Source of the DNA: a bacterium
GTDB taxonomy: Bacteria > Bacteroidota > Ignavibacteria > Kapaibacteriales > UBA2268
NCBI GenBank assembly: GCA_030431515.1
Contig: JAUIIX010000035.1
Location: forward strand, 1 to 34,832
Length of the DNA stretch: 34,832 nucleotides
Reading direction: 5' to 3'
The translations under genes and the position numbers were made by a program. Below are positions 3,653 to 34,832 of this stretch, piece by piece (the first letter of the stretch is position 1; each line of letters begins with the position of its first letter). The notes beneath the pieces were generated by a model. That model worked only from the letters and a program-made list of their open reading frames with translations, made no database searches and was not told where the DNA came from.

Positions 3653-5614
3653 TTAAGAAACAATAATATCTTTAGAAAAGATAAGTTTTACTATTGTTCC
3701 TACATTTTCTTCACTTTCATATTCTATTTTACCTTTGTGAACTTTAATAAAATCTTTACATATCAGAAGACCATATCCAAAACTATTGTTATTGTCACCA
3801 TAGTTTCCACTACTAAGATCAGTGTTGTTAGTTCTTAGTTGCTTTAAAATTTCTTTATTCATACCAAAACCTTGGTCTTCTATAAAAATAATGAAAGTTG
3901 AATCTGTATTCTTAGAGTAGATTTTTATATTTTTTCCATTATTAGAATATTTAGAAGCATTAGTAATTATATTTCTAATTATCGTACTCATCAAATTTGA
4001 ATCAACATTTAAAACAACATCTCTATTCAAATCATTAATTAATTTCTGGTCTTTGTTTTCTAATTGTAAATGAAGATGCTCATAAATATTCTGAACTAAA
4101 TTAAATATTTTAGTTGGCATTGGGTTATAATTATATATTTTGTCATTACTTACTTTCAACCAATTAAGAATATCTTTTAACAAATCATAAGTATTAATAG
4201 AAGCTCTGCTTAATTCAAGTATTATTTCTAACCTTTCTTCATCCGACATATTATTATAGTCTTGCTTCAAAATAGTTAGAAGTTGCATAGAAGAATTAAT
4301 AGGATTTATCATATCGTGTGATAAAATTGAAAGTAACTTGTTTTTATTGTTGATTTCAATTTCTAATTTTTTCAATGTTTCAATTTTATCAGAGATTAAT
4401 GTATTTTGTTTTTTTGATACTTCTTTTAATCTAAGTGCATAATACAAAGCAAATATAATAAACAAAGTTATAAGAATAGTTAGTACAATGAGTATTGTAA
4501 TAAACAACTCATAGTCTTCATTTTTCTTATTAGATTCTTCAAGTTTAATATTTGTTTCGTACAACTTAGTTAATAAATTAACTTTATGAATTTGAAGTTT
4601 ATTGATAGAATCATTATCATAAGACAATAAATTCAATTTTTCAAGTCCTTCTGAATCGTGTGTTAAACCATATAGTTTTTCTAAATGTTTAATATTTAGT
4701 TTTATTAGATGAACATTTTTTGTTAATTGAAGAGAATCACGTGCAAGTTCTAAATAATATTTAGCTGAATCAAGTTGACCATTCTCCATAAATGCCTCCC
4801 CCAAATTATTCATTCCAGAACTTCTTAGGATAAGGTTATCAATTGATTGCCTTGCGTACAAATCTTTCCTACCATAATGAATTGAACTGTCAAGATTACC
4901 TATTAAAAAGTAATAGTAACCCATAGACACATAATAACTTGAACTATAATAACTATTTGCTAAATATTCTTCTTTATGGTATTTTTGTAAAAAGAAGAAG
5001 GCCGAATCTGGAACGCCTTTTGAGAAATAGACATTAGATAAAAAACGAATTGAATTTCCATATAATTGTGGATTATCCATACTCGACAATAATTGAATTG
5101 ACTCAAAAACATAATATTTCGCAGAATCCATTTCATTTTTTACTCTGTAAATATCTGAGATTCCATTTAAAGCAGTAATATAATAATAACTATTCTTCTT
5201 TATATTATTTAATGATAATGTTTTTCTAAAATAATGCTCCGTTAAATCGTACATTCTATAAGATGAATACCTTTGAGCAATTTTATTATAATAAAATCCT
5301 TTTATATCATCACTATATTTGCTTAAATTGCCTAACAAGAATTTAAGCGAATTGCGAGAAGATTCAATCTCCCCATAATTCATTTCAAATTCCCATTTTA
5401 ATACGTAATAACGTAATCTAAAAACAGAAGTCGTATCATGCTTTGTCACTTCATCTAAGTGATTAAGCATTTGTTTTGATCTTCCTTTGTCAGTGTATAT
5501 TTTTTGATTAAATATCTTTACATACTCTTCAAAATGCTCGATATCAACATGAGCTTTTATTGCTTGAGTAGGTAGAAATAGATAAATTGTGATAATTAGT
5601 AAAATATATTTCAT
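3653..5614 (-). CDS. TPR-containing membrane sensor histidine kinase
   Basis: A 653-residue sensor kinase. A signal peptide (residues 1-21) is followed by a helical tetratricopeptide-like region to about residue 340, which would be periplasmic. A transmembrane helix (about 370-393, LFITILIVLTILITLFII) and a short coiled segment follow. The dimerisation/phosphoacceptor helix has His433 in LSHDMINPI. The HATPase domain shows the N box (RNIITNASK, about 547-555), G1 (DQGFGMN, about 580) and G2 (GYGLLICK, about 613). This is the common Bacteroidota TPR-kinase architecture. No response regulator gene is adjacent, so it is an orphan kinase with an unknown partner and signal. TAAATTTG lies 23 nt upstream of the ATG. 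Confidence 0.9.
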   Translation of the reverse strand: MKYILLIITIYLFLPTQAIKAHVDIEHFEEYVKIFNQKIYTDKGRSKQMLNHLDEVTKHDTTSVFRLRYYVLKWEFEMNYGEIESSRNSLKFLLGNLSKYSDDIKGFYYNKIAQRYSSYRMYDLTEHYFRKTLSLNNIKKNSYYYITALNGISDIYRVKNEMDSAKYYVFESIQLLSSMDNPQLYGNSIRFLSNVYFSKGVPDSAFFFLQKYHKEEYLANSYYSSSYYVSMGYYYFLIGNLDSSIHYGRKDLYARQSIDNLILRSSGMNNLGEAFMENGQLDSAKYYLELARDSLQLTKNVHLIKLNIKHLEKLYGLTHDSEGLEKLNLLSYDNDSINKLQIHKVNLLTKLYETNIKLEESNKKNEDYELFITILIVLTILITLFIIFALYYALRLKEVSKKQNTLISDKIETLKKLEIEINNKNKLLSILSHDMINPINSSMQLLTILKQDYNNMSDEERLEIILELSRASINTYDLLKDILNWLKVSNDKIYNYNPMPTKIFNLVQNIYEHLHLQLENKDQKLINDLNRDVVLNVDSNLMSTIIRNIITNASKYSNNGKNIKIYSKNTDSTFIIFIEDQGFGMNKEILKQLRTNNTDLSSGNYGDNNNSFGYGLLICKDFIKVHKGKIEYESEENVGTIVKLIFSKDIIVS

Positions 5615-12912: not shown

Positions 12913-12963
12913 AAAAATATTTAGTAATCTATTTCGTTAAAACTTTAGTTATTAAATAAGGAA
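12913..12963 (+). repeat. 51-bp leader repeat, copy 1 (upstream of SRPBCC gene 1)
   Basis: This 51-bp block matches 13951-14001 at 48 of 51 positions. Both copies end within a few bases of a start codon and carry the gene's purine-rich ribosome-binding region (AAGGA here). It therefore looks like a duplicated promoter/leader. AGTAATCTATTTCG and GTTATTAAAT are the conserved cores, but no clean TAnnTTTG is present. Confidence 0.8.
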
Positions 12964-13950: not shown

Positions 13951-14001
13951 AAAAATATTTAGTAATCTAATTCGTTAAAACTTTTGTTATTAAATAGGGA
14001 A
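13951..14001 (+). repeat. 51-bp leader repeat, copy 2 (upstream of 14007 gene)
   Basis: This block is 48/51 identical to 12913-12963. It ends 5 nt before the ATG at 14007 and includes GGGAA, part of a strong purine-rich ribosome-binding site (GGGAAAAGGG). The three differences are two A/T swaps and one A-to-G change that strengthens the ribosome-binding site. Confidence 0.8.
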
Positions 14002-16327: not shown

Positions 16328-16377
16328 GTCATTCTGAGGCGTAGGCGAAGAATCTCCCAGAAATTACAACCATCTTA
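16328..16377 (-). repeat. Composite dispersed repeat, right half
   Basis: On the minus strand this reads TAAGATG, GTAATTTCTGGGAGATTC, then TTCGCCTACGCC and TCAGAATGAC. It matches 63-112 at 46 of 50 positions. It lies 54 bp before a perfect palindrome copy. Confidence 0.85.
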
Positions 16378-16431
16378 ATACCGTGTTTTTTCAATAGTCA
16401 TTCAGAGCGAAGCTATGAATCCATTGTATTC

Positions 16432-16459
16432 GTAGTGAACGCAAATTTGCGTTCACTAC
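16432..16459. repeat. 28-bp perfect palindrome
   Basis: Arms GTAGTGAACGC and GCGTTCACTAC flank a self-complementary AAATTT core, so all 28 bp form a perfect inverted repeat. An identical copy is at 33544-33571, and variant copies are at 19112, 21786 and 26785. Confidence 0.95.
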
Positions 16460-16472
16460 ATTTTCATCGTTA

Positions 16473-16556
16473 CGTCATATTGAGCGAAGCAAAATATCTC
16501 GTCAAAATTACCAACATCTCAATCCATGAAATCCATCTTATATCCATGATTCTGAA
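16473..16556 (-). repeat. Composite dispersed repeat, full copy (minus orientation)
   Basis: On the minus strand it reads TCAGAATCATGG, GGATT-type repeats, GAGATGTTGGTAATTTTG, then GAGATATTTTGCTTCGCTC and AATATGACG. Its right module is closest to the copy at 34251-34322 (GAGATATTTCGCTTCGCTC, AATATGAC). It starts 14 bp after the palindrome. Confidence 0.8.
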
Positions 16557-16848
16557 ACAAAAAATAATCACGCAAAAATGTAACAAAATCGCCTCTAAAA
16601 AGTTAATTGGATATAGAAGAATTACAATTTTAAAAAAATGTTTTTTATTTAGAAATATTATTTATTTTTGTAGAAAGTAAAAGAGCAAATTTATGATTTA
16701 TACATTTTCATATATTGACTTAAACAACCCTATATATATAGTTATGTATATATGGCTCTTGCTTTGCCTGTCATTTTTGTACTCCAATCTCAATATACTT
16801 TTGATTTTATCAAAAACTATCAGGGTATTTCTTTCAACAGTTTATCAA

Positions 16849-16971
16849 AAATCAACTTAGAGATTGAATATTTATTCAATTTAAAGAAACAAAGATTTCG
16901 GCGTTAATTAATATTACTAAAATAGTTTCGATTTTTTTAAATTTTTAATATTATTAACAAAAAGGTAAGCA
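16849..16971 (+). promoter_or_regulatory. Conserved leader of the first Asp-box protein gene
   Basis: From AATCAACTT through GGCGTTAATTAATAT (16900-16914), AGTTTC and TTTTTAATAT to AAAAGG before the ATG, this leader aligns with 19432-19549. Leader conservation points to duplication of the whole transcription unit and suggests shared regulation. The promoter boxes are uncertain; TAGTTTCG at 16923-16930 is one mismatch from TAnnTTTG. Confidence 0.6.
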
Positions 16972-19104
16972 ATGAATAAAATTTTTATATTAATTTTATT
17001 ATTCCCATTCTTGACTTTACAAAGTCAAGAATGGGTTGATTATAATTCTCCTAAGTCGCCTATCAGAGTAAAAAAAATACAAGGTAACCAAGATATACTT
17101 CTACTTGAAAATTTTCCAGACATTTATAAGTTTAATATTAATAATCAAAATTATAGTTTAATAAACACTGATGAAATTAAAGATAAAATTAGTTTTAGTG
17201 ATATTAAATTATATGGTGATACATTATTTATTAGCTCATATTATAGTTTAGAAAAAAATGGTGGGGTTTACAGGTCAACTGATTATGGAAAAAATTGGAC
17301 AAATCTAATTAATACTGAAAAAATAAGTGTGGAAAAAATAGAAATGGATAACAACAATTACTACTTATTGTGTTCAAACTTTATTTTAAAATCAAGTAAT
17401 TATGGATTTGATTGGGATACTTTATTTCTCAAAAATTACTTTAATCAATTATATGCAAAAAATGACACAGTTATTTGTTTTGATAAAGGTTATTTTACAA
17501 ATAATGCCTATAAAAATAATGGTTTAATTTATTCTATAGATAATGGAATAAGTTGGGTAAGTCCAAAAAATACAATTCAAAATTTAAAAATAAATGACTT
17601 TGCTTTTTCAAATAATAAAATTATTATTGGGACTAATGAAGGATTTTATATAAGCGAAAATTTTGGAACTGATTGGAACAGAAAATTAATAAATTCAAAA
17701 ATAATAGAAATAACAGCTGTTAATTTTATAAATAATAAATATATAGCAGGCACAATAAATGGAGAAGTATTTGAGTCAACTGATTTAATAAACTGGGAAT
17801 TAATTTACAACAACTCTACTATTGGAATAATAAATGATATTTTTGTTAATAATGATAAATATTATTTTTCCTCAAATCCAGGTATTTATGAAATTAACAA
17901 CAAAGTGGGATTATTAAATATAACAAGTAATTCAATTATCTATGAATTAAATTATAATGAATATAATGACAAAATATTTGTATCAACTATTAGTCCTGGT
18001 TTGTTAACCATAGATAATTCTAATAATTGGATTCTTGTTAATGACTCTTTAAATAAAGTTAAATCAAATTATCTAAATTTTACTATTAGCGATTCAATTA
18101 TATTAACATATAATCCAGCTTATTACATTGGAAATTCAGTGTCAGTTTCTTTTGATAGTGGAAAATCTTTCAATGAAAATCAAGTTGGAATAAATAACCG
18201 AATAATTAATGCATTTATAAATGAAGAAAAACTTTTTACAATAGATAATTTTGGAAGTTTGTATTTTTCACAAAACAAAGGAATTGATTGGATCAAGTTT
18301 CAAAGTGAATTAAGATTTAATACGCTAAAAAACTTTAATAAACTTATATTAGCAGCTACTAATTCTGGTATTTATTATTCAGAAAGTAATGGAAATCATT
18401 GGAATATATTTACAAACGATGATTTAATTAAGAACTTAAATATCATTGATATAACTTATTACAATAAAATAATTATTGCCAACAATGGAACAAATTTATT
18501 CGCAAGTTATGATTCAGGTATTAATTGGGAAGTTATTAAATTTCCTAAACAAATTAATAATATTAATAAAACCCTTGTTTATAAAAACAATATTTTTATT
18601 ATAACTTTTGATGAATTTATTTATTCAACTAATTTAGGCAAAGATTGGAAAAGTATAAGTAATGGAATAAGTAATTTAAATTTTGATAAAGAATTTTCAG
18701 AATTTATCGATTTAGATTTAGTTGAAGATAATTTATTTTTAACTTTTTTAACTTATGGATTATACACTCTTCCACTTTCCGAACTCGGTATAGAATATAC
18801 CTCTGTCGAAAAAACCGAGCAACGAAATTATCTCTATACATTTCAACCATTTCCACAACCGACAAAACAAGAAGTAAAGATAAATACATATTGGGATAGT
18901 CCCTTGCCATTTACTGTCGATGATGTAGAGATTTACAACTTAGCAGGTGTAAAAATAAATACTACAAACAAACTTAGCATCGACAAAGAATCGAACTACA
19001 ACGGACATATAATTTGGGATACAAGTGGCGAACAAGCAGGAATATATATAGTGAATATAAAACACGGAACTGAAACAAGAACGCAGAAGATTATTGTTGA
19101 GTGA
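16972..19104 (+). CDS. Secreted Asp-box/YCF48-like protein with type IX secretion C-terminal domain, paralog 1
   Basis: A 710-residue exported protein. The signal peptide (MNKIFILILLFPFLTLQSQ) is followed by about ten Asp-box-like motifs of form S.D.G..W, such as VYRSTDYGKNW, YISENFGTDW, YYSESNGNHW and FASYDSGINW. Together these should form one or two beta-propellers of the sortilin/YCF48/BNR type. The last 80 or so residues (FPQPTKQEVKI...VEIYNLAGVKI...GIYIVNIKHGTETRTQKIIVE) form a Por-type type A sorting domain that directs type IX secretion and surface anchoring. The C-terminal 113 residues are about 90% identical to those of the gene at 19550, whereas the propellers are divergent. Ligand or adhesive function is unknown. 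Confidence 0.88.
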   Translation: MNKIFILILLFPFLTLQSQEWVDYNSPKSPIRVKKIQGNQDILLLENFPDIYKFNINNQNYSLINTDEIKDKISFSDIKLYGDTLFISSYYSLEKNGGVYRSTDYGKNWTNLINTEKISVEKIEMDNNNYYLLCSNFILKSSNYGFDWDTLFLKNYFNQLYAKNDTVICFDKGYFTNNAYKNNGLIYSIDNGISWVSPKNTIQNLKINDFAFSNNKIIIGTNEGFYISENFGTDWNRKLINSKIIEITAVNFINNKYIAGTINGEVFESTDLINWELIYNNSTIGIINDIFVNNDKYYFSSNPGIYEINNKVGLLNITSNSIIYELNYNEYNDKIFVSTISPGLLTIDNSNNWILVNDSLNKVKSNYLNFTISDSIILTYNPAYYIGNSVSVSFDSGKSFNENQVGINNRIINAFINEEKLFTIDNFGSLYFSQNKGIDWIKFQSELRFNTLKNFNKLILAATNSGIYYSESNGNHWNIFTNDDLIKNLNIIDITYYNKIIIANNGTNLFASYDSGINWEVIKFPKQINNINKTLVYKNNIFIITFDEFIYSTNLGKDWKSISNGISNLNFDKEFSEFIDLDLVEDNLFLTFLTYGLYTLPLSELGIEYTSVEKTEQRNYLYTFQPFPQPTKQEVKINTYWDSPLPFTVDDVEIYNLAGVKINTTNKLSIDKESNYNGHIIWDTSGEQAGIYIVNIKHGTETRTQKIIVE

Positions 19105-19111
19105 GAAAATA

Positions 19112-19139
19112 GTAGTGAACGCAAATTTGCGTTTGCTAT
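19112..19139. repeat. 28-bp palindrome, variant copy
   Basis: The left arm is intact (GTAGTGAACGC) and the right arm has changed to GCGTTTGCTAT. It starts 8 nt after the stop of the first Asp-box gene. The same 8-nt offset follows the second paralog. Confidence 0.85.
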
Positions 19140-19291
19140 ATTTATATTAACATCATTAAGCGAAATTGAAATTTAATTTGCATTTAATAATTAAAATTAT
19201 TAATTTGTAAAGTAAATAACTGGCAATAATAAAAACTATTTTATATTTTGCATATTATGATAAATACACAAATAAACAATTTTGGCTTAAC

Positions 19292-19347
<56 letters not shown>

Positions 19348-19431
19348 TATATTTGTGTATCTCAACTAATCTAACTTGTGAAAATCCAACTAAAAAATCA
19401 AGAAAATGACTGTAAAATTAAACATACAAAT

Positions 19432-19549
19432 CAATCAACTTGGGATTTATATAACTTAATAAAACAAAAATTTAGGCGTTAATTAATATCTCTAAACAGT
19501 TTCAATTTTCGTAAAAATTTTTAATATAATTAAAAAAAAAGGTTTTAAA
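19432..19549 (+). promoter_or_regulatory. Conserved leader of the second Asp-box protein gene
   Basis: This aligns with 16849-16971: AATCAACTT, GGCGTTAATTAATAT (19475-19489), AGTTTC, TTTTTAATAT and a final AAAGG. It probably carries the promoter and ribosome-binding region common to both paralogs. Confidence 0.6.
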
Positions 19550-21778
19550 ATGAAAAATATTATTTTATTGTTATTATTTAATATTCCATTGCTATCCCAA
19601 TGGAAAGAAATAGAAAGTCCAAATGGAAGAATTCCAATTAAAAATTCGGATTATTCTAATAGTACTTTATCTATGTTTACAGATTTTGATATTTATTATA
19701 CTGAAGATGCTTGGAGCACATATAATAAATCAAGTTTAAGTAAAATAGATTCAGTTGGAATAATAAAAAAATGTATAAAATACGAAAATACTCTTTATGT
19801 ATTAGTACTTGAAAGCATTTATTACAATGGAAAAGGTGGCTTTTATAAAAGCACTGATAATGGTAAAAATTGGAGTTTGGTAGATAGTCTTTTACAAAAT
19901 CATAAAATTTTAGATTTTGATGTTGATGAAAAAGGATTTCATTTCCTAACACAAATATCTTACGCATATATTAATTCAGTCTATACTGTAGTTAACTATG
20001 GTGGCTATATTAATTATAAAAATGGAAATATTGAGCAACACACAATAAAATATTATAATAATGTCTTAAAAGATTCAAGTAATATAACAGGTCAAAACAT
20101 TCAAAGGTACAAAAACAAAACTTTTATTTTTGATAATAAACTGGCATCGGGTAGTGGACAATCATCCAGTAAAGTTTTGATTTCTAAAGACAATGGAATA
20201 AGTTTTACTCATAAAGGCAGTGAAATAAGCGAAGATGTTATTAGTGCGTATTGTTTTGCAGGTGATACATTAGTTGTTGGAAAAACATCAATACATATTT
20301 CTACAGATATTGGTGAAACATGGAAGCGTCAACAACCCAAAACACCATTTTATGTAGGTTTAGGTGTTCTGAGTATGGTTTATCATAAAGATTTTTTGTA
20401 TGTAAGTAATATAGATGGTCAAATATATAGAAGTAGTGATTTGGGTATTAATTGGACTAAAATATTTGACAACAAGGAATATGGTGGAGTTAATTTAATT
20501 TCAGATGATAATTATATTTACTTTTCATGTTTTAATGGTTTATTTTCTTCATCAGATAATGGAGATACATTTGGAGAAGTAGCAATTTTTGATAAAAGTT
20601 TAAATTTTCAATTTAGTCAAGATGCAAGTGATTTATACTTATTAACTTATAATACAAGTATTTTTAAAAAAGAAAATATAAATTCATCTTGGGAAAAGTT
20701 AAATGATTCACTTTATAATACAGTTTTTGCTCAATCTTGTATATCAGTAAAGGAAAATAGCATATTAACAGCATATACTTCAAATGGGGAATTATCATAT
20801 TCAAATGATAAAGGCAGAACATGGAATAGTAAAATAGTTGATGAAATATCAAATTCCTTTAATAAAGTGTTAATTAATAAAAATAGATTTATTGCTTTAT
20901 CAAATAGATTTGGCTTTACTTATTCAGATGATTTTGGGGAAACTTGGAATAAATTAAACGATGTTCCATTAGCTCAAATATTCAACAATATTGAAGTATA
21001 TAATGATACGTTATTTGCAGGATTAAGATCTGGTGGGATTTTAGTTTCAGAAAATAATGGAGATAGTTGGAATAAAATAGAAAGTGCAAATGACTCAATA
21101 ATTAAATTCAAACAAATTAATAATATAGCTAAAAATAAAAATGTGCTTATTGCAAGTTCGAATGGAATTTCTATATTCAAATCAGAAGATTATGGAAAAA
21201 ATTGGAAAATAGTTGAAAATTATCAAAATAAAGGAAACAATAGAAAACTAATTAATTATAAAGAAAACTTCTTTGCATATACAAATGATGGATTCTACTA
21301 TTCTACTAATAATGGAAATGATTGGGAAAAATATGATATCGGTATAGAGCAATTTAATAATTCCAAAAATTATATATTTAAAGACCTTGTAGTATATAAC
21401 AGTAACATTTTATTATGCTTCTACAAAGGAATCTATACTCTTCCACTTTCCGAACTCGGAATTGAATACACCTCAGTAGAAAAAACTGAAAAACGAAACT
21501 ACCTTTATACATTTCCACCATTTCCACAGCCAACAAAACAAGAAGTGAAAATTAGTATTTATTGGGATAGTGCTTTACCTTTTACAGTTGATGATGTAGA
21601 AATTTATAACTTAGCAGGGGTTAAAATAAACACTGAAAATAAACTAAGCATCAACAAAGAAACGAACTATAATGGACATATTATCTGGGACCTAAGTGGC
21701 GAACAAGCAGGTATTTATATAGTGAATATAAAACACGGAACTGAAACAAGAACGCAGAAAGTGATGGTGGAAAAGTAA
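19550..21778 (+). CDS. Secreted Asp-box/YCF48-like protein with type IX secretion C-terminal domain, paralog 2
   Basis: A 742-residue exported protein with the same plan as the gene at 16972. A short signal peptide (MKNIILLLLFNIPLLSQ) is followed by about ten Asp-box-like motifs (FYKSTDNGKNW, HISTDIGETW, IYRSSDLGINW, TYSDDFGETW, LVSENNGDSW, YYSTNNGNDW) consistent with sialidase/sortilin-like propellers. The C-terminal sorting domain ends GIYIVNIKHGTETRTQKVMVEK. Its last 113 residues differ at only 11 positions from paralog 1. The gene is preceded by a leader shared with paralog 1 and followed, 8 nt after the stop, by a variant palindrome. It is probably exposed on the outer-membrane surface. 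Confidence 0.88.
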   Translation: MKNIILLLLFNIPLLSQWKEIESPNGRIPIKNSDYSNSTLSMFTDFDIYYTEDAWSTYNKSSLSKIDSVGIIKKCIKYENTLYVLVLESIYYNGKGGFYKSTDNGKNWSLVDSLLQNHKILDFDVDEKGFHFLTQISYAYINSVYTVVNYGGYINYKNGNIEQHTIKYYNNVLKDSSNITGQNIQRYKNKTFIFDNKLASGSGQSSSKVLISKDNGISFTHKGSEISEDVISAYCFAGDTLVVGKTSIHISTDIGETWKRQQPKTPFYVGLGVLSMVYHKDFLYVSNIDGQIYRSSDLGINWTKIFDNKEYGGVNLISDDNYIYFSCFNGLFSSSDNGDTFGEVAIFDKSLNFQFSQDASDLYLLTYNTSIFKKENINSSWEKLNDSLYNTVFAQSCISVKENSILTAYTSNGELSYSNDKGRTWNSKIVDEISNSFNKVLINKNRFIALSNRFGFTYSDDFGETWNKLNDVPLAQIFNNIEVYNDTLFAGLRSGGILVSENNGDSWNKIESANDSIIKFKQINNIAKNKNVLIASSNGISIFKSEDYGKNWKIVENYQNKGNNRKLINYKENFFAYTNDGFYYSTNNGNDWEKYDIGIEQFNNSKNYIFKDLVVYNSNILLCFYKGIYTLPLSELGIEYTSVEKTEKRNYLYTFPPFPQPTKQEVKISIYWDSALPFTVDDVEIYNLAGVKINTENKLSINKETNYNGHIIWDLSGEQAGIYIVNIKHGTETRTQKVMVEK

Positions 21779-21785
21779 ATTAAAA

Positions 21786-21813
21786 GCAGTGAATGCAAAT
21801 TTGTGTTCACTAC
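21786..21813. repeat. 28-bp palindrome, variant copy
   Basis: Arms GCAGTGAATGC and TGTGTTCACTAC-type sequence flank the AAATTT core. Several substitutions are paired G-T wobble or compensating-looking, but one arm end is mismatched. It lies 8 nt after the stop of paralog 2. Confidence 0.8.
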
Positions 21814-26743: not shown

Positions 26744-26787
26744 GGGTGATAAAGAAAATTGTAGTGAGGGTGATAAAGAAAATTGAA
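26740..26787 (+). repeat. 24-bp direct tandem duplication at the hutI stop codon
   Basis: Two adjacent 24-bp units (26740-26763 and 26764-26787), each beginning GTGAGGGTGATAAAGAAAAT, differ only at their ends (TTGTA versus TTGAA). Unit 1 includes the hutI TGA. The next sequence, GTGAACGC, starts the palindrome, so the duplication borders that element. Confidence 0.9.
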
Positions 26788-26812
26788 GTGAACGCAAATT
26801 TGCGTTCACTAT
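26785..26812. repeat. 28-bp palindrome between convergent hutI and mreC
   Basis: The inner 24 bp are perfectly palindromic (AGTGAACGC...GCGTTCACT around AAATTT). ATATTTTT follows on the plus strand. The minus-strand exit has CAATTTTC. Between two converging genes, with the mreC stop only 4 nt away, it is well placed to act as a bidirectional terminator. Confidence 0.9.
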
Positions 26813-33543: not shown

Positions 33544-33571
33544 GTAGTGAACGCAAATTTGCGTTCACTAC
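33544..33571. repeat. 28-bp perfect palindrome
   Basis: This is identical to 16432-16459: arms GTAGTGAACGC / GCGTTCACTAC around AAATTT. Fragments of the TCATTTCGAGC...GTCGAGAAA and GAACTTGTTTCGGAATC type flank it at 33449 and 33617. Confidence 0.95.
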
Positions 33572-33981: not shown

Positions 33982-34087
33982 GCCCACCCTTATTCATAAT
34001 ACAATTTTTCTCTTCGCTTTGAATGACAATATTTCCAATTTTTTGTAGTGTTAATTATGTTGTTTTTTGTATTCAAATATCTATGTT

Positions 34088-34104
34088 CAACTTCTCCGAA
34101 GTTG
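34088..34104. repeat. Short hairpin repeat CAACTTC-TCC-GAAGTTG
   Basis: Perfect 7-bp arms surround a TCC loop. A second copy with the same core is at 34140-34156. Confidence 0.8.
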
Positions 34105-34139
34105 TGATATACTATTGATTTATATTTGCTATTAACATT

Positions 34140-34156
34140 AAACTTCTCCGAAGTTT
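34140..34156. repeat. Short hairpin repeat AAACTTC-TCC-GAAGTTT
   Basis: It has the same core as 34088-34104 and is followed by further T residues, so on the plus strand it also looks like a minimal terminator. Confidence 0.8.
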
Positions 34157-34217
34157 TTTAAGTAGCCATGACAAATAAATGATTTTGCGAAGAATAATGA
34201 AGGAGAGGTTTTTTTCT

Positions 34218-34244
34218 AGATTCTTCGCTTCGCTCTGAATGACG
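34218..34244 (+). repeat. Composite repeat, right-hand module only
   Basis: AGATTCTTCGCTTCGCTC followed by TGAATGACG is the right end of the composite repeat, placed just before a full copy that starts at 34251. Confidence 0.7.
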
Positions 34245-34250
34245 GGGAAT

Positions 34251-34322
34251 TCATTATCACAGATTGCACGGATTTAAAATGTTGGTAATTTAAACGAGAT
34301 ATTTCGCTTCGCTCAATATGAC
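34251..34322 (+). repeat. Composite dispersed repeat, full copy
   Basis: TCATTATCACAGATT, GCACGGATTTAAAATG, TTGGTAATTTAAAC, then GAGATATTTCGCTTCGCTC and AATATGAC, in the same module order as 21-112 and 16473-16556 (minus). Confidence 0.8.
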
Positions 34323-34379
34323 AGGCTAGTTTTTAAGAAAAACGGAATACAATCACCCCGTCGCTGACGTGACACCCCT

Positions 34380-34427
34380 TTTTTACAGTTCGACTACGCT
34401 CAATGACCGAGGGGAATTTTGAGAGAA
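34380..34427 (+). repeat. 48-bp direct repeat, copy B
   Basis: It matches 33934-33981 at 47 of 48 positions, about 446 bp apart and in the same orientation. Confidence 0.92.
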
Positions 34428-34472
34428 TATGGATTCCACGCTTTGCTCTGTATAACCTATTTTTATAGAAAA

Positions 34473-34488
34473 TTGCAGTATTTGCAGT
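34473..34488 (+). repeat. TTGCAGTA-TTTGCAGT pair, copy 1
   Basis: Two TTGCAGT heptamers 9 nt apart, start to start; the same 16-bp block recurs at 34576-34591. Confidence 0.75.
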
Positions 34489-34575
34489 TTTTTGCAATGA
34501 TTTTTTATAATATTTTATTATTTATAGCATTTTCCCTCATTGTAATTATTTAGTTTTTATGGCATTATACTAATT

Positions 34576-34591
34576 TTGCAGTATTTGCAGT
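34576..34591 (+). repeat. TTGCAGTA-TTTGCAGT pair, copy 2
   Basis: Identical to 34473-34488, 103 bp downstream and in the same orientation. Confidence 0.75.
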
Positions 34592-34644
34592 AAAAAGGGT
34601 GTTTTTTTCGTTATTCAAAGAACAATGTTTTAATGATTGATAAA

Positions 34645-34741
34645 GTAGGAACGGTTTTGAGCATTAAGGCAGTTTATATCATCTCATTTAGTCTTATAAT
34701 GGCTACGAGTTTTAGTTTGTTGTTTTCTAACCGTTCCCTAC
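34645..34741. repeat. 97-bp element with terminal inverted repeats
   Basis: GTAGGAACGGTT (34645-34656) and AACCGTTCCCTAC (34729-34741) are inverted repeats that differ by one extra base. Inside, CATTAAG and CTTATAATG can form a second stem. No coding capacity is seen. It could be a miniature transposable element or a structured small RNA. Confidence 0.55.
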
Positions 34742-34832
34742 AATACAATGAATTCCACGCTTTGCTCTGAATGACGAGAAATTGTAATAAACTTGGCTAA
34801 AGCTATCATTTTATACCGTTTAAATGGCTGGA

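What the first reader, a model, noticed from the sequence alone, without database searches (positions are those of the whole stretch)
18763..21778. Sorting-domain cassette far more conserved than the propellers it follows
The last 113 residues of the proteins at 16972 and 19550 differ at only 11 positions, and the nucleotide sequence is similarly close, whereas the preceding 600 residues are strongly diverged. Leaders before both genes are also alike, and both are followed 8 nt later by the palindrome. This points to gene conversion of a type IX secretion tail, or assembly of new effectors onto a fixed tail.
Basis: partly seen in the sequence, partly recalled or inferred. Interest (0 to 1): 0.6.

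Follow-up and report, generated by a model that had tools for sequence, protein, structure and literature searches.

The report
Swappable export tail on surface propellers
Many surface proteins of this environmental bacterium end in almost the same export tag although the rest of each protein is very different, because natural selection keeps the tag unchanged and the end of one gene is now and then copied onto another.

Summary
In detail: the two window propellers share 101 of 112 tail residues but 163 of 582 body residues. The tail is a type IX secretion C-terminal domain (CTD; PF18962); PorV, PorU and SprA are in the genome. Nine loci carry this tail; in 53 other genomes of the family the best match is 55%.

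Between the window genes synonymous divergence is alike in tail and body (p=0.88) and tail dN/dS is about 0.05: no recent conversion here, and selection does the conserving. Tail exchange is nevertheless real in the family: tail type does not follow body descent (AU p=1e-83); some pairs have tails 3-6 times less diverged at synonymous sites than their bodies, with abrupt edges near the CTD start; three show the reverse; one relative has a hybrid CTD. The palindrome is a genome-wide repeat (46 sites), and similar leaders stand before other genes.

Closest precedent: KLIKK proteases of Tannerella, whose shared CTD was left unexplained. New variant of a known kind.

The parts
16972..19104 (+). 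Gene A: 710-aa propeller-like protein with T9SS tail
   Evidence: ORF; PF18962 29.8 bits, weak BNR matches below cut-off; 28% identical to gene B body
18766..19101 (+). Shared tail of gene A (linker plus CTD)
   Evidence: 101/112 aa identical to gene B tail; PF18962 match 18850-19098
19550..21778 (+). Gene B: 742-aa beta-propeller protein with T9SS tail
   Evidence: Sortilin-Vps10 73 bits, PSII_BNR 45 bits, PF18962 30.2 bits; model: propeller strands to residue 632, low-confidence linker 641-661, CTD strands 665-740
21437..21775 (+). Shared tail of gene B (linker plus CTD)
   Evidence: ten places at 88-100% in own genome, itself included; PF18962 match 21521-21769
16870..16963 (+). Leader before gene A
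   Evidence: 81% over 96 nt to gene B leader; 90% over 119 nt to a site on contig C118 that lies just before a small gene upstream of a propeller gene with another tail class
19445..19539 (+). Leader before gene B
   Evidence: window 19425-19487 is 97% identical to the DNA before the small gene upstream of the C152 propeller
16561..16650 (+). Second, other leader type with no gene directly behind it (probable remnant)
   Evidence: matches sites on C135, C83, C152, C33, C118 and C133, before or near propeller genes in most
19114..19137 (+). Palindrome after gene A (genome-wide repeat, probable terminator)
   Evidence: 2 mismatches to the consensus
21788..21811 (+). Palindrome after gene B (same repeat)
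   Evidence: 2 mismatches to the consensus

Best explanation
The tail is the sorting signal (CTD) by which the type IX secretion system recognises these propeller proteins. Shown: it is under strong purifying selection while the propellers diverge fast; the same tail sits on propellers from different branches of the body tree; and in several pairs of this genome and of relatives, tails (with some linker, and in some cases the DNA after the stop codon) have passed between genes as 3'-end cassettes at different times, with edges at or upstream of the CTD start. Inferred: the agent is ordinary RecA-type homologous recombination (gene conversion or 3'-end replacement) between conserved tail DNA, and exchange is tolerated because CTDs are interchangeable within one species. 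For the two window genes the last exchange, if there was one, is too old to see, and selection accounts for their similarity.
For: Selection: window pair dN 0.05, dS 0.97 in the tail. Discordance: the seven type-1 bodies as one clade are rejected (lnL 180 lower, AU p 1.2e-83), and C117 (type-1 tail) joins C11 and C151 (type-2 tail) at 100/100. Young tails on old bodies: C11/C151 synonymous differences 5/70 in the tail, 59/179 in the body, p 1e-5; likewise one or more pairs in G008 (p 2e-5), G017 (p 2e-4) and G020 (p 2e-6); of 85 pairs compared 41 were printed, the least diverged first; 10 of these have p<0.05 and 5 pass Bonferroni for 85. Among the 150 scored PF18962 matches of this genome, 23 non-type-1 pairs could be tested: 7 at p<0.05, of which 5 have a younger and 2 an older tail; 4 pass Bonferroni for 23. 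Edges are abrupt (27 to 17 of 30 in C11/C151; 30, 24, 14 of 30 in C138). Reverse polarity in C83/C133b: 7/82 just upstream, 11/28 in the tail, p 5e-4, borders chosen after seeing the profile. L115: chance identity (3-13 of 30) up to the WDC codons, then 24-27 of 30 to L107 of the same MAG and 28 of 30 in the 30 nt after the stop. Type-1 tails as a set: four-fold difference 0.43 (95% CI 0.33-0.52), bodies 0.60 (0.55-0.64); saturation would be about 0.57 and 0.59.
Against: Of 15 type-1 pairs of full genes 13 were printed, and 11 of these, the window pair among them, show p>0.05 between tail and body. Of 23 other pairs 16 show none. Four MAG records of one related group share tails at 77-100% with four-fold sites near saturation (L107/L110: tail 95/100, 15/34; body 33/65), so selection alone can hold a tail. 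In L115 the coding part is as close to L110 of another MAG (26, 25, 27 of 30) as to L107; only the DNA after the stop singles out L107/L108. Runs tests within type-1 tails are weak (87 and 681 of 2000 shuffles as extreme for eight tails; 454 and 338 for six). AU tests on the tail tree do not reject body-like grouping (p 0.75, 0.35). C12/w16972 polarity is not significant (p 0.09). G005, G016 and G007 show no pair with a tail above 80% on a body below 50%. No recombination agent was identified.
Confidence: 0.76

Rival explanations
1. Purifying selection alone: the genes descend whole from one ancestor, the CTD is constrained and the propellers are not.
For: Equal synonymous divergence in the window pair; dN/dS about 0.05 in the tail; tails conserved across MAGs of one group with near-saturated four-fold sites.
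Against: Body tree contradicts tail type; young tails on saturated bodies; hybrid CTD in L115; reversed pairs.
Confidence: 0.17
2. Recent gene conversion between the two adjacent window genes.
For: Adjacent direct orientation; a 44-nt stretch near the 3' end without a difference; three of the five young-tail pairs of this genome are neighbours.
Against: Four-fold 14/30 and two-fold 14/42 in the tail equal the body (p 0.88); the nearest tail to gene B is on C117 (96%), not gene A (90%).
Confidence: 0.03
3. New propeller bodies arrive by horizontal transfer and are fused to a resident tail, so the tail stays and the bodies change.
For: In G008 one body groups with a body from another genus (99% SH-aLRT) but has the G008 tail; one clade of all five G008 bodies is rejected (AU p 5e-5).
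Against: In the window's genome the ten bodies form one branch in the larger tree (87% SH-aLRT; not resolved), which points to duplication at home.
Confidence: 0.2
4. Assembly artefact: the metagenome assembler joined bodies to a collapsed tail repeat.
For: Contigs C83 and C133 end inside the tail with an exact 76-nt overlap; the C12 and C117 tails lie within about 800 nt of contig ends; two of the pairs run off contig ends.
Against: Tails differ from each other at many synonymous sites; the C138, C128 and C151 pairs lie side by side on one contig; the pattern recurs in four other MAGs (G008, G017, G020, HKST-UBA125).
Confidence: 0.03

Closest known systems
KLIKK proteases of Tannerella forsythia (PMC4404884; abstract and passages seen)
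   Same: Several secreted proteins of one species share a nearly identical T9SS CTD while other CTDs of that species are variable; A/T-rich tracts precede the genes; the authors call the shared CTD unusual, guess at a recent common origin and say that its origin needs further research.
   Different: There six proteases of different families; here propellers of one fold. The C-terminal KLIKK motif is absent here. No synonymous-site or exchange analysis was in the passages seen.
T9SS CTD interchangeability (PMC11285876; abstract and passages seen)
   Same: CTDs are said to be exchangeable between cargoes within a species, while a foreign CTD failed in another species: the condition under which tail swapping is harmless.
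   Different: Engineered chimaeras, not natural exchange.
Porphyromonas gingivalis domain rearrangement and allelic exchange in surface proteins (PMC5266723; passages seen)
   Same: Recombination reshuffles domains of T9SS cargo.
   Different: Between strains and, in the passages seen, in catalytic and adhesin domains; here the exchanged unit is the sorting tail, between paralogs.
Polymorphic toxin and antigenic-variation cassettes (recalled, no call)
   Same: A constant part and a variable part recombine through shared DNA.
   Different: Here the constant export part is at the C terminus and is itself the exchanged unit; no expression site with silent donors was seen.

Membership tests
Type IX secretion cargo | C-terminal sorting domain PF18962 / Por_Secre_tail | tested here: met
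   29.8 and 30.2 bits, cut-off 27
Type IX secretion cargo | Secretion machinery in the same genome | tested here: met
   PorV 283.9 bits, PorU-type sortase 807.7 bits, SprA_N 166.7 bits, each over its cut-off; other components not searched
Type IX secretion cargo | Ig-like seven-strand CTD fold | tested here: inconclusive
   Model has six beta strands at 665-740, block pLDDT 57-81, 9 sequences; no CTD of known structure by sequence
Type IX secretion cargo | N-terminal Sec signal peptide | not tested
   A hydrophobic start is seen by eye in both; no predictor was run
Type IX secretion cargo | CTD-dependent secretion and cleavage | not testable with these tools
   needs an experiment
Gene-converted paralogs (window pair) | Lower synonymous divergence in the shared segment than outside | tested here: not met
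   Window pair p 0.88; met for other pairs such as C11/C151
Gene-converted paralogs (family) | Segment type conflicts with the tree of the rest of the gene | tested here: met
   type-1 bodies not one clade, AU p 1.2e-83; the tail tree itself is too short to test
KLIKK-type shared CTD set | C-terminal KLIKK motif | tested here: not met
   Tails end TQKIIVE and TQKVMVEK

The most novel reading that the evidence does not exclude
In this bacterial family each genus keeps one or a few house tails: address labels matched to its own secretion machinery, which spread from cargo to cargo by repeated 3'-end exchange, so that fast-diverging surface propellers, whatever their descent, are kept on, or brought back to, the current label. 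The sorting signal would then evolve in concert as a genome-wide unit, apart from the proteins it exports.
Probability: 0.35. Interest if true: 0.66.

Novelty: new variant of a known kind. Interest (0 to 1): 0.5.

Why it matters
T9SS tails are reported to be generally very unlike one another (PMC11285876), and why some sets of cargo share almost the same tail was left open for the KLIKK proteases (PMC4404884). Here one can watch the process at several ages in one genome and in relatives: old sets held by selection, young tail transfers with sharp edges, reversals, and a half-replaced CTD. That separates two explanations that look alike at the protein level and shows that the tail of a secreted protein can have another history than its body, which matters for family trees built from full-length cargo proteins.

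Tried and rejected
Recent conversion between the two window genes: rejected by the synonymous test. Palindrome as a cassette-specific site: rejected, 46 sites in the genome, 21 exact; it follows five of the nine type-1 tails and also tails of other classes (C15, C119, C123), so it may travel with some tails but does not mark them. Leader as part of a tail cassette: rejected, since a closely similar leader stands before a gene unit with another tail class. Runs tests for small mosaic tracts inside type-1 tails: weak. AU tests on the tail tree: uninformative with 105 columns and long branches. Known CTD structure by sequence: none convincing, best E 0.13. Fold search: the body looks like double propellers (GH74 xyloglucanases, TM about 0.5; PorZ, TM 0.36), but the model is weak (mean pLDDT 66), so I draw no function from it. 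Silent-donor antigenic variation: two truncated copies exist (C12, C152:14339), but no expression site was seen; I made no dedicated search for one. Paper searches for natural exchange or homogenisation of T9SS tails; none of the papers listed was such a report by title and abstract; open-licence library only. Passages of PMC5808330 and PMC7014623 were seen and gave nothing on exchange.
Full report
What is there. Window ORFs 16972-19104 and 19550-21778 code for propeller proteins with hydrophobic starts. Both end in PF18962, the type IX secretion sorting domain (29.8 and 30.2 bits, cut-off 27); gene B has clear Sortilin/BNR propeller matches, gene A only weak ones. The last 112 aligned residues differ at 11; the bodies are 28% identical. 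The DNA of the tails is 85.8% identical over 323 nt. The identity edge lies about 360 nt before the end, close to the linker that an AlphaFold model of gene B places at residues 641-661 between propeller and CTD (mean pLDDT 66, so only the domain order is trusted).

Copies in the genome. A search with the tail finds ten places at 88-100%, the window's two included, and then nothing above 48%. Contigs C83 and C133 overlap by exactly 76 nt inside the tail and are probably two ends of one gene, so nine loci carry this type-1 tail. Two of the nine are truncated: C12, and C152:14339, a remnant patched from pieces like C83 and C124. The genome has PorV, a PorU-type sortase and SprA. It has at least 150 PF18962 matches (150 of 215 candidates were scored; 148 over the cut-off). 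In 39 relatives no tail exceeds 46% identity to the window's, and in the 53 other genomes of the family that were searched none exceeds 55%. Named relatives are mostly Ignavibacteriae/Ignavibacteriota MAGs.

Selection or exchange in the window pair. Tail dN is 0.05 and dS 0.97; body pS is 0.59 and tail pS 0.54. At four-fold sites 14 of 30 differ in the tail and 26 of 51 in the body; at two-fold sites 14 of 42 and 29 of 85; p=0.88. As a set, the six type-1 genes with whole bodies and tails have a four-fold difference of 0.43 (0.33-0.52) in tails and 0.60 (0.55-0.64) in bodies, where 0.57 and 0.59 would be saturation. So the tails may be younger than the bodies, but slow synonymous sites in tails are not excluded. 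Pair by pair, 11 of 13 printed type-1 pairs (of 15) show p>0.05.

Exchange in the family. Body tree and tail type disagree. Bodies with the type-1 tail are not one clade (lnL 180 lower, AU p 1.2e-83), and C117 (type-1 tail) groups at 100/100 with C11 and C151, whose tails are type 2 (tail identities). C11 and C151 have bodies 41% identical and saturated, yet tails 94% identical with 5 of 70 synonymous differences (body 59 of 179; p 1e-5). Their identity drops from 27 to 17 of 30 at one step, about 330 nt before the end.

The whole set of tails. Of 65 pairs with tails at least 60% identical, 36 are within type 1. Of the other 29, six had no usable body and 23 were tested. Seven have p<0.05: five with a younger tail (C38/C91, C11/C151, C138, C128, C151:2127/658; the last four named pairs but C11/C151 are neighbouring genes) and two with an older tail on a young body (C41/C33, C108/C91). 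Four of the five pass Bonferroni for 23 tests. Sixteen have p>0.05. Two of the compared genes (C33, C91:10004) run off contig ends. In C128 the likeness runs on past the stop; in C11/C151, C138 and C151 it ends there (ungapped comparison). C83/C133b, with type-1 tails, also shows the reverse sign: 7 of 82 synonymous differences just upstream, 11 of 28 in the tail (p 5e-4); I set those borders after seeing the identity profile, so the p value flatters.

Relatives. Of the loci taken from ten relatives, G017 has eleven tails at 64-93% (ten of them at 82-93%) on bodies at 24-37%, apart from one pair of near-duplicates (81%); G008 has five tails at 83-96% on bodies at 23-33%, apart from one pair (89%); G020 has one pair with 91 of the last 92 residues alike on bodies at 31%; G005, G016 and G007 show no such pair. 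In synonymous tests 85 pairs were compared and 41 printed, the least diverged first; 10 of the 41 have p<0.05 and 5 pass Bonferroni for 85: C11/C151, one of G017, two of G008, one of G020. G008 tails form one branch (96), while its bodies as one clade are rejected (AU p 5e-5). AU tests in the tail tree did not reject body-like grouping (p 0.75 and 0.35); those trees need only attach a long branch to one tip, so I give them little weight, but they are not support. In the group of HKST-UBA125, HGW-Ignavibacteriae-4, LH_M33 and 3_bin.102, tails are 77-100% identical across records with four-fold sites near saturation, which is evidence for selection rather than exchange. In the same group, L115 (HGW-Ignavibacteriae-4) has a CTD whose first part is unlike all eight others compared (3-13 of 30) and whose last 29 codons match the tail of L107 from the same MAG at 24-27 of 30 per 30 nt, followed by 28 of 30 in the first 30 nt after the stop, hairpin included. 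L110 of another MAG is as close in the coding part (25-27) but not after the stop (14 of 30). A break inside the domain, with likeness that runs on into non-coding DNA, is hard to explain without recombination.

Other claims of the finding. The leaders are alike (81% over 96 nt), but a closer match to gene A's leader (90% over 119 nt) stands on C118, before a small gene upstream of a propeller with another tail class, and a second leader type lies at 16561-16650 with no gene directly behind it. The palindrome is found at 46 sites in the genome with up to three mismatches, 21 of them exact.

Known work. [quoted passage not shown] PMC4404884 (passages seen) reports the nearly identical CTDs of KLIKK proteases as unusual and of origin still to be explained. 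PMC5266723 (passages seen) describes domain rearrangement in P. gingivalis surface proteins. Searches listed no report of natural tail exchange between T9SS paralogs; subscription papers were not searched.

Verdict. The thing is real. Its conservation in the window is due to selection; exchange of the tail is real in the family, old if any for the window genes and more recent elsewhere. The recombination agent and the link to the secretion machinery are inferred.

Noticed in passing
Contigs C117, C152, C124, C133, C11, C151 (loci L021, L023, L022, L025, L028, L029), upstream of the propeller genes: A Cys-rich protein of about 200 aa with a hydrophobic start (two examples without Pfam match) ends some 55-75 nt upstream of five of ten propeller genes examined, with a sixth copy broken by stops at C151; nine places in the genome, also near C118 and C155. 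Both window genes lack it, and the DNA before gene B resembles the leader of the C152 copy instead. It may be a partner of the propeller.
   Followed up: partly
L026 (contig C138), ORF at 4536-4976: A 146-aa gene with a signal-peptide-like start followed almost directly by a CTD 47% identical to the window tail: a tail with almost no cargo.
   Followed up: no
L025 1510-3744 and L030 (C83): The two propellers are mosaics: stretches about 92-100% identical alternate with stretches near 60%, so exchange may not be limited to tails.
   Followed up: partly
window 16434-16457, 19114-19137, 21788-21811, 26787-26810, 33546-33569: Near-perfect palindrome AGTGAACGCAAATTTGCGTTCACT, 46 sites in the genome (21 exact), a REP-like or terminator repeat.
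   Followed up: partly
window 34004-34783, 48-112, 16328-16522: Another dispersed repeat (CGCTTCGCTC...AATGAC type) at both ends of the window and before gene A.
   Followed up: no
window 12913-12963 and 13951-14001: Two 51-nt copies, 94% identical, each just before an ORF (12968 and 14007): likely shared promoter or leader.
   Followed up: no
own genome, type-1 genes: The type-1 tails are richer in G+C than the bodies of the full genes (0.31-0.36 against 0.22-0.25; third positions 0.20-0.29 against 0.13-0.17).
   Followed up: no
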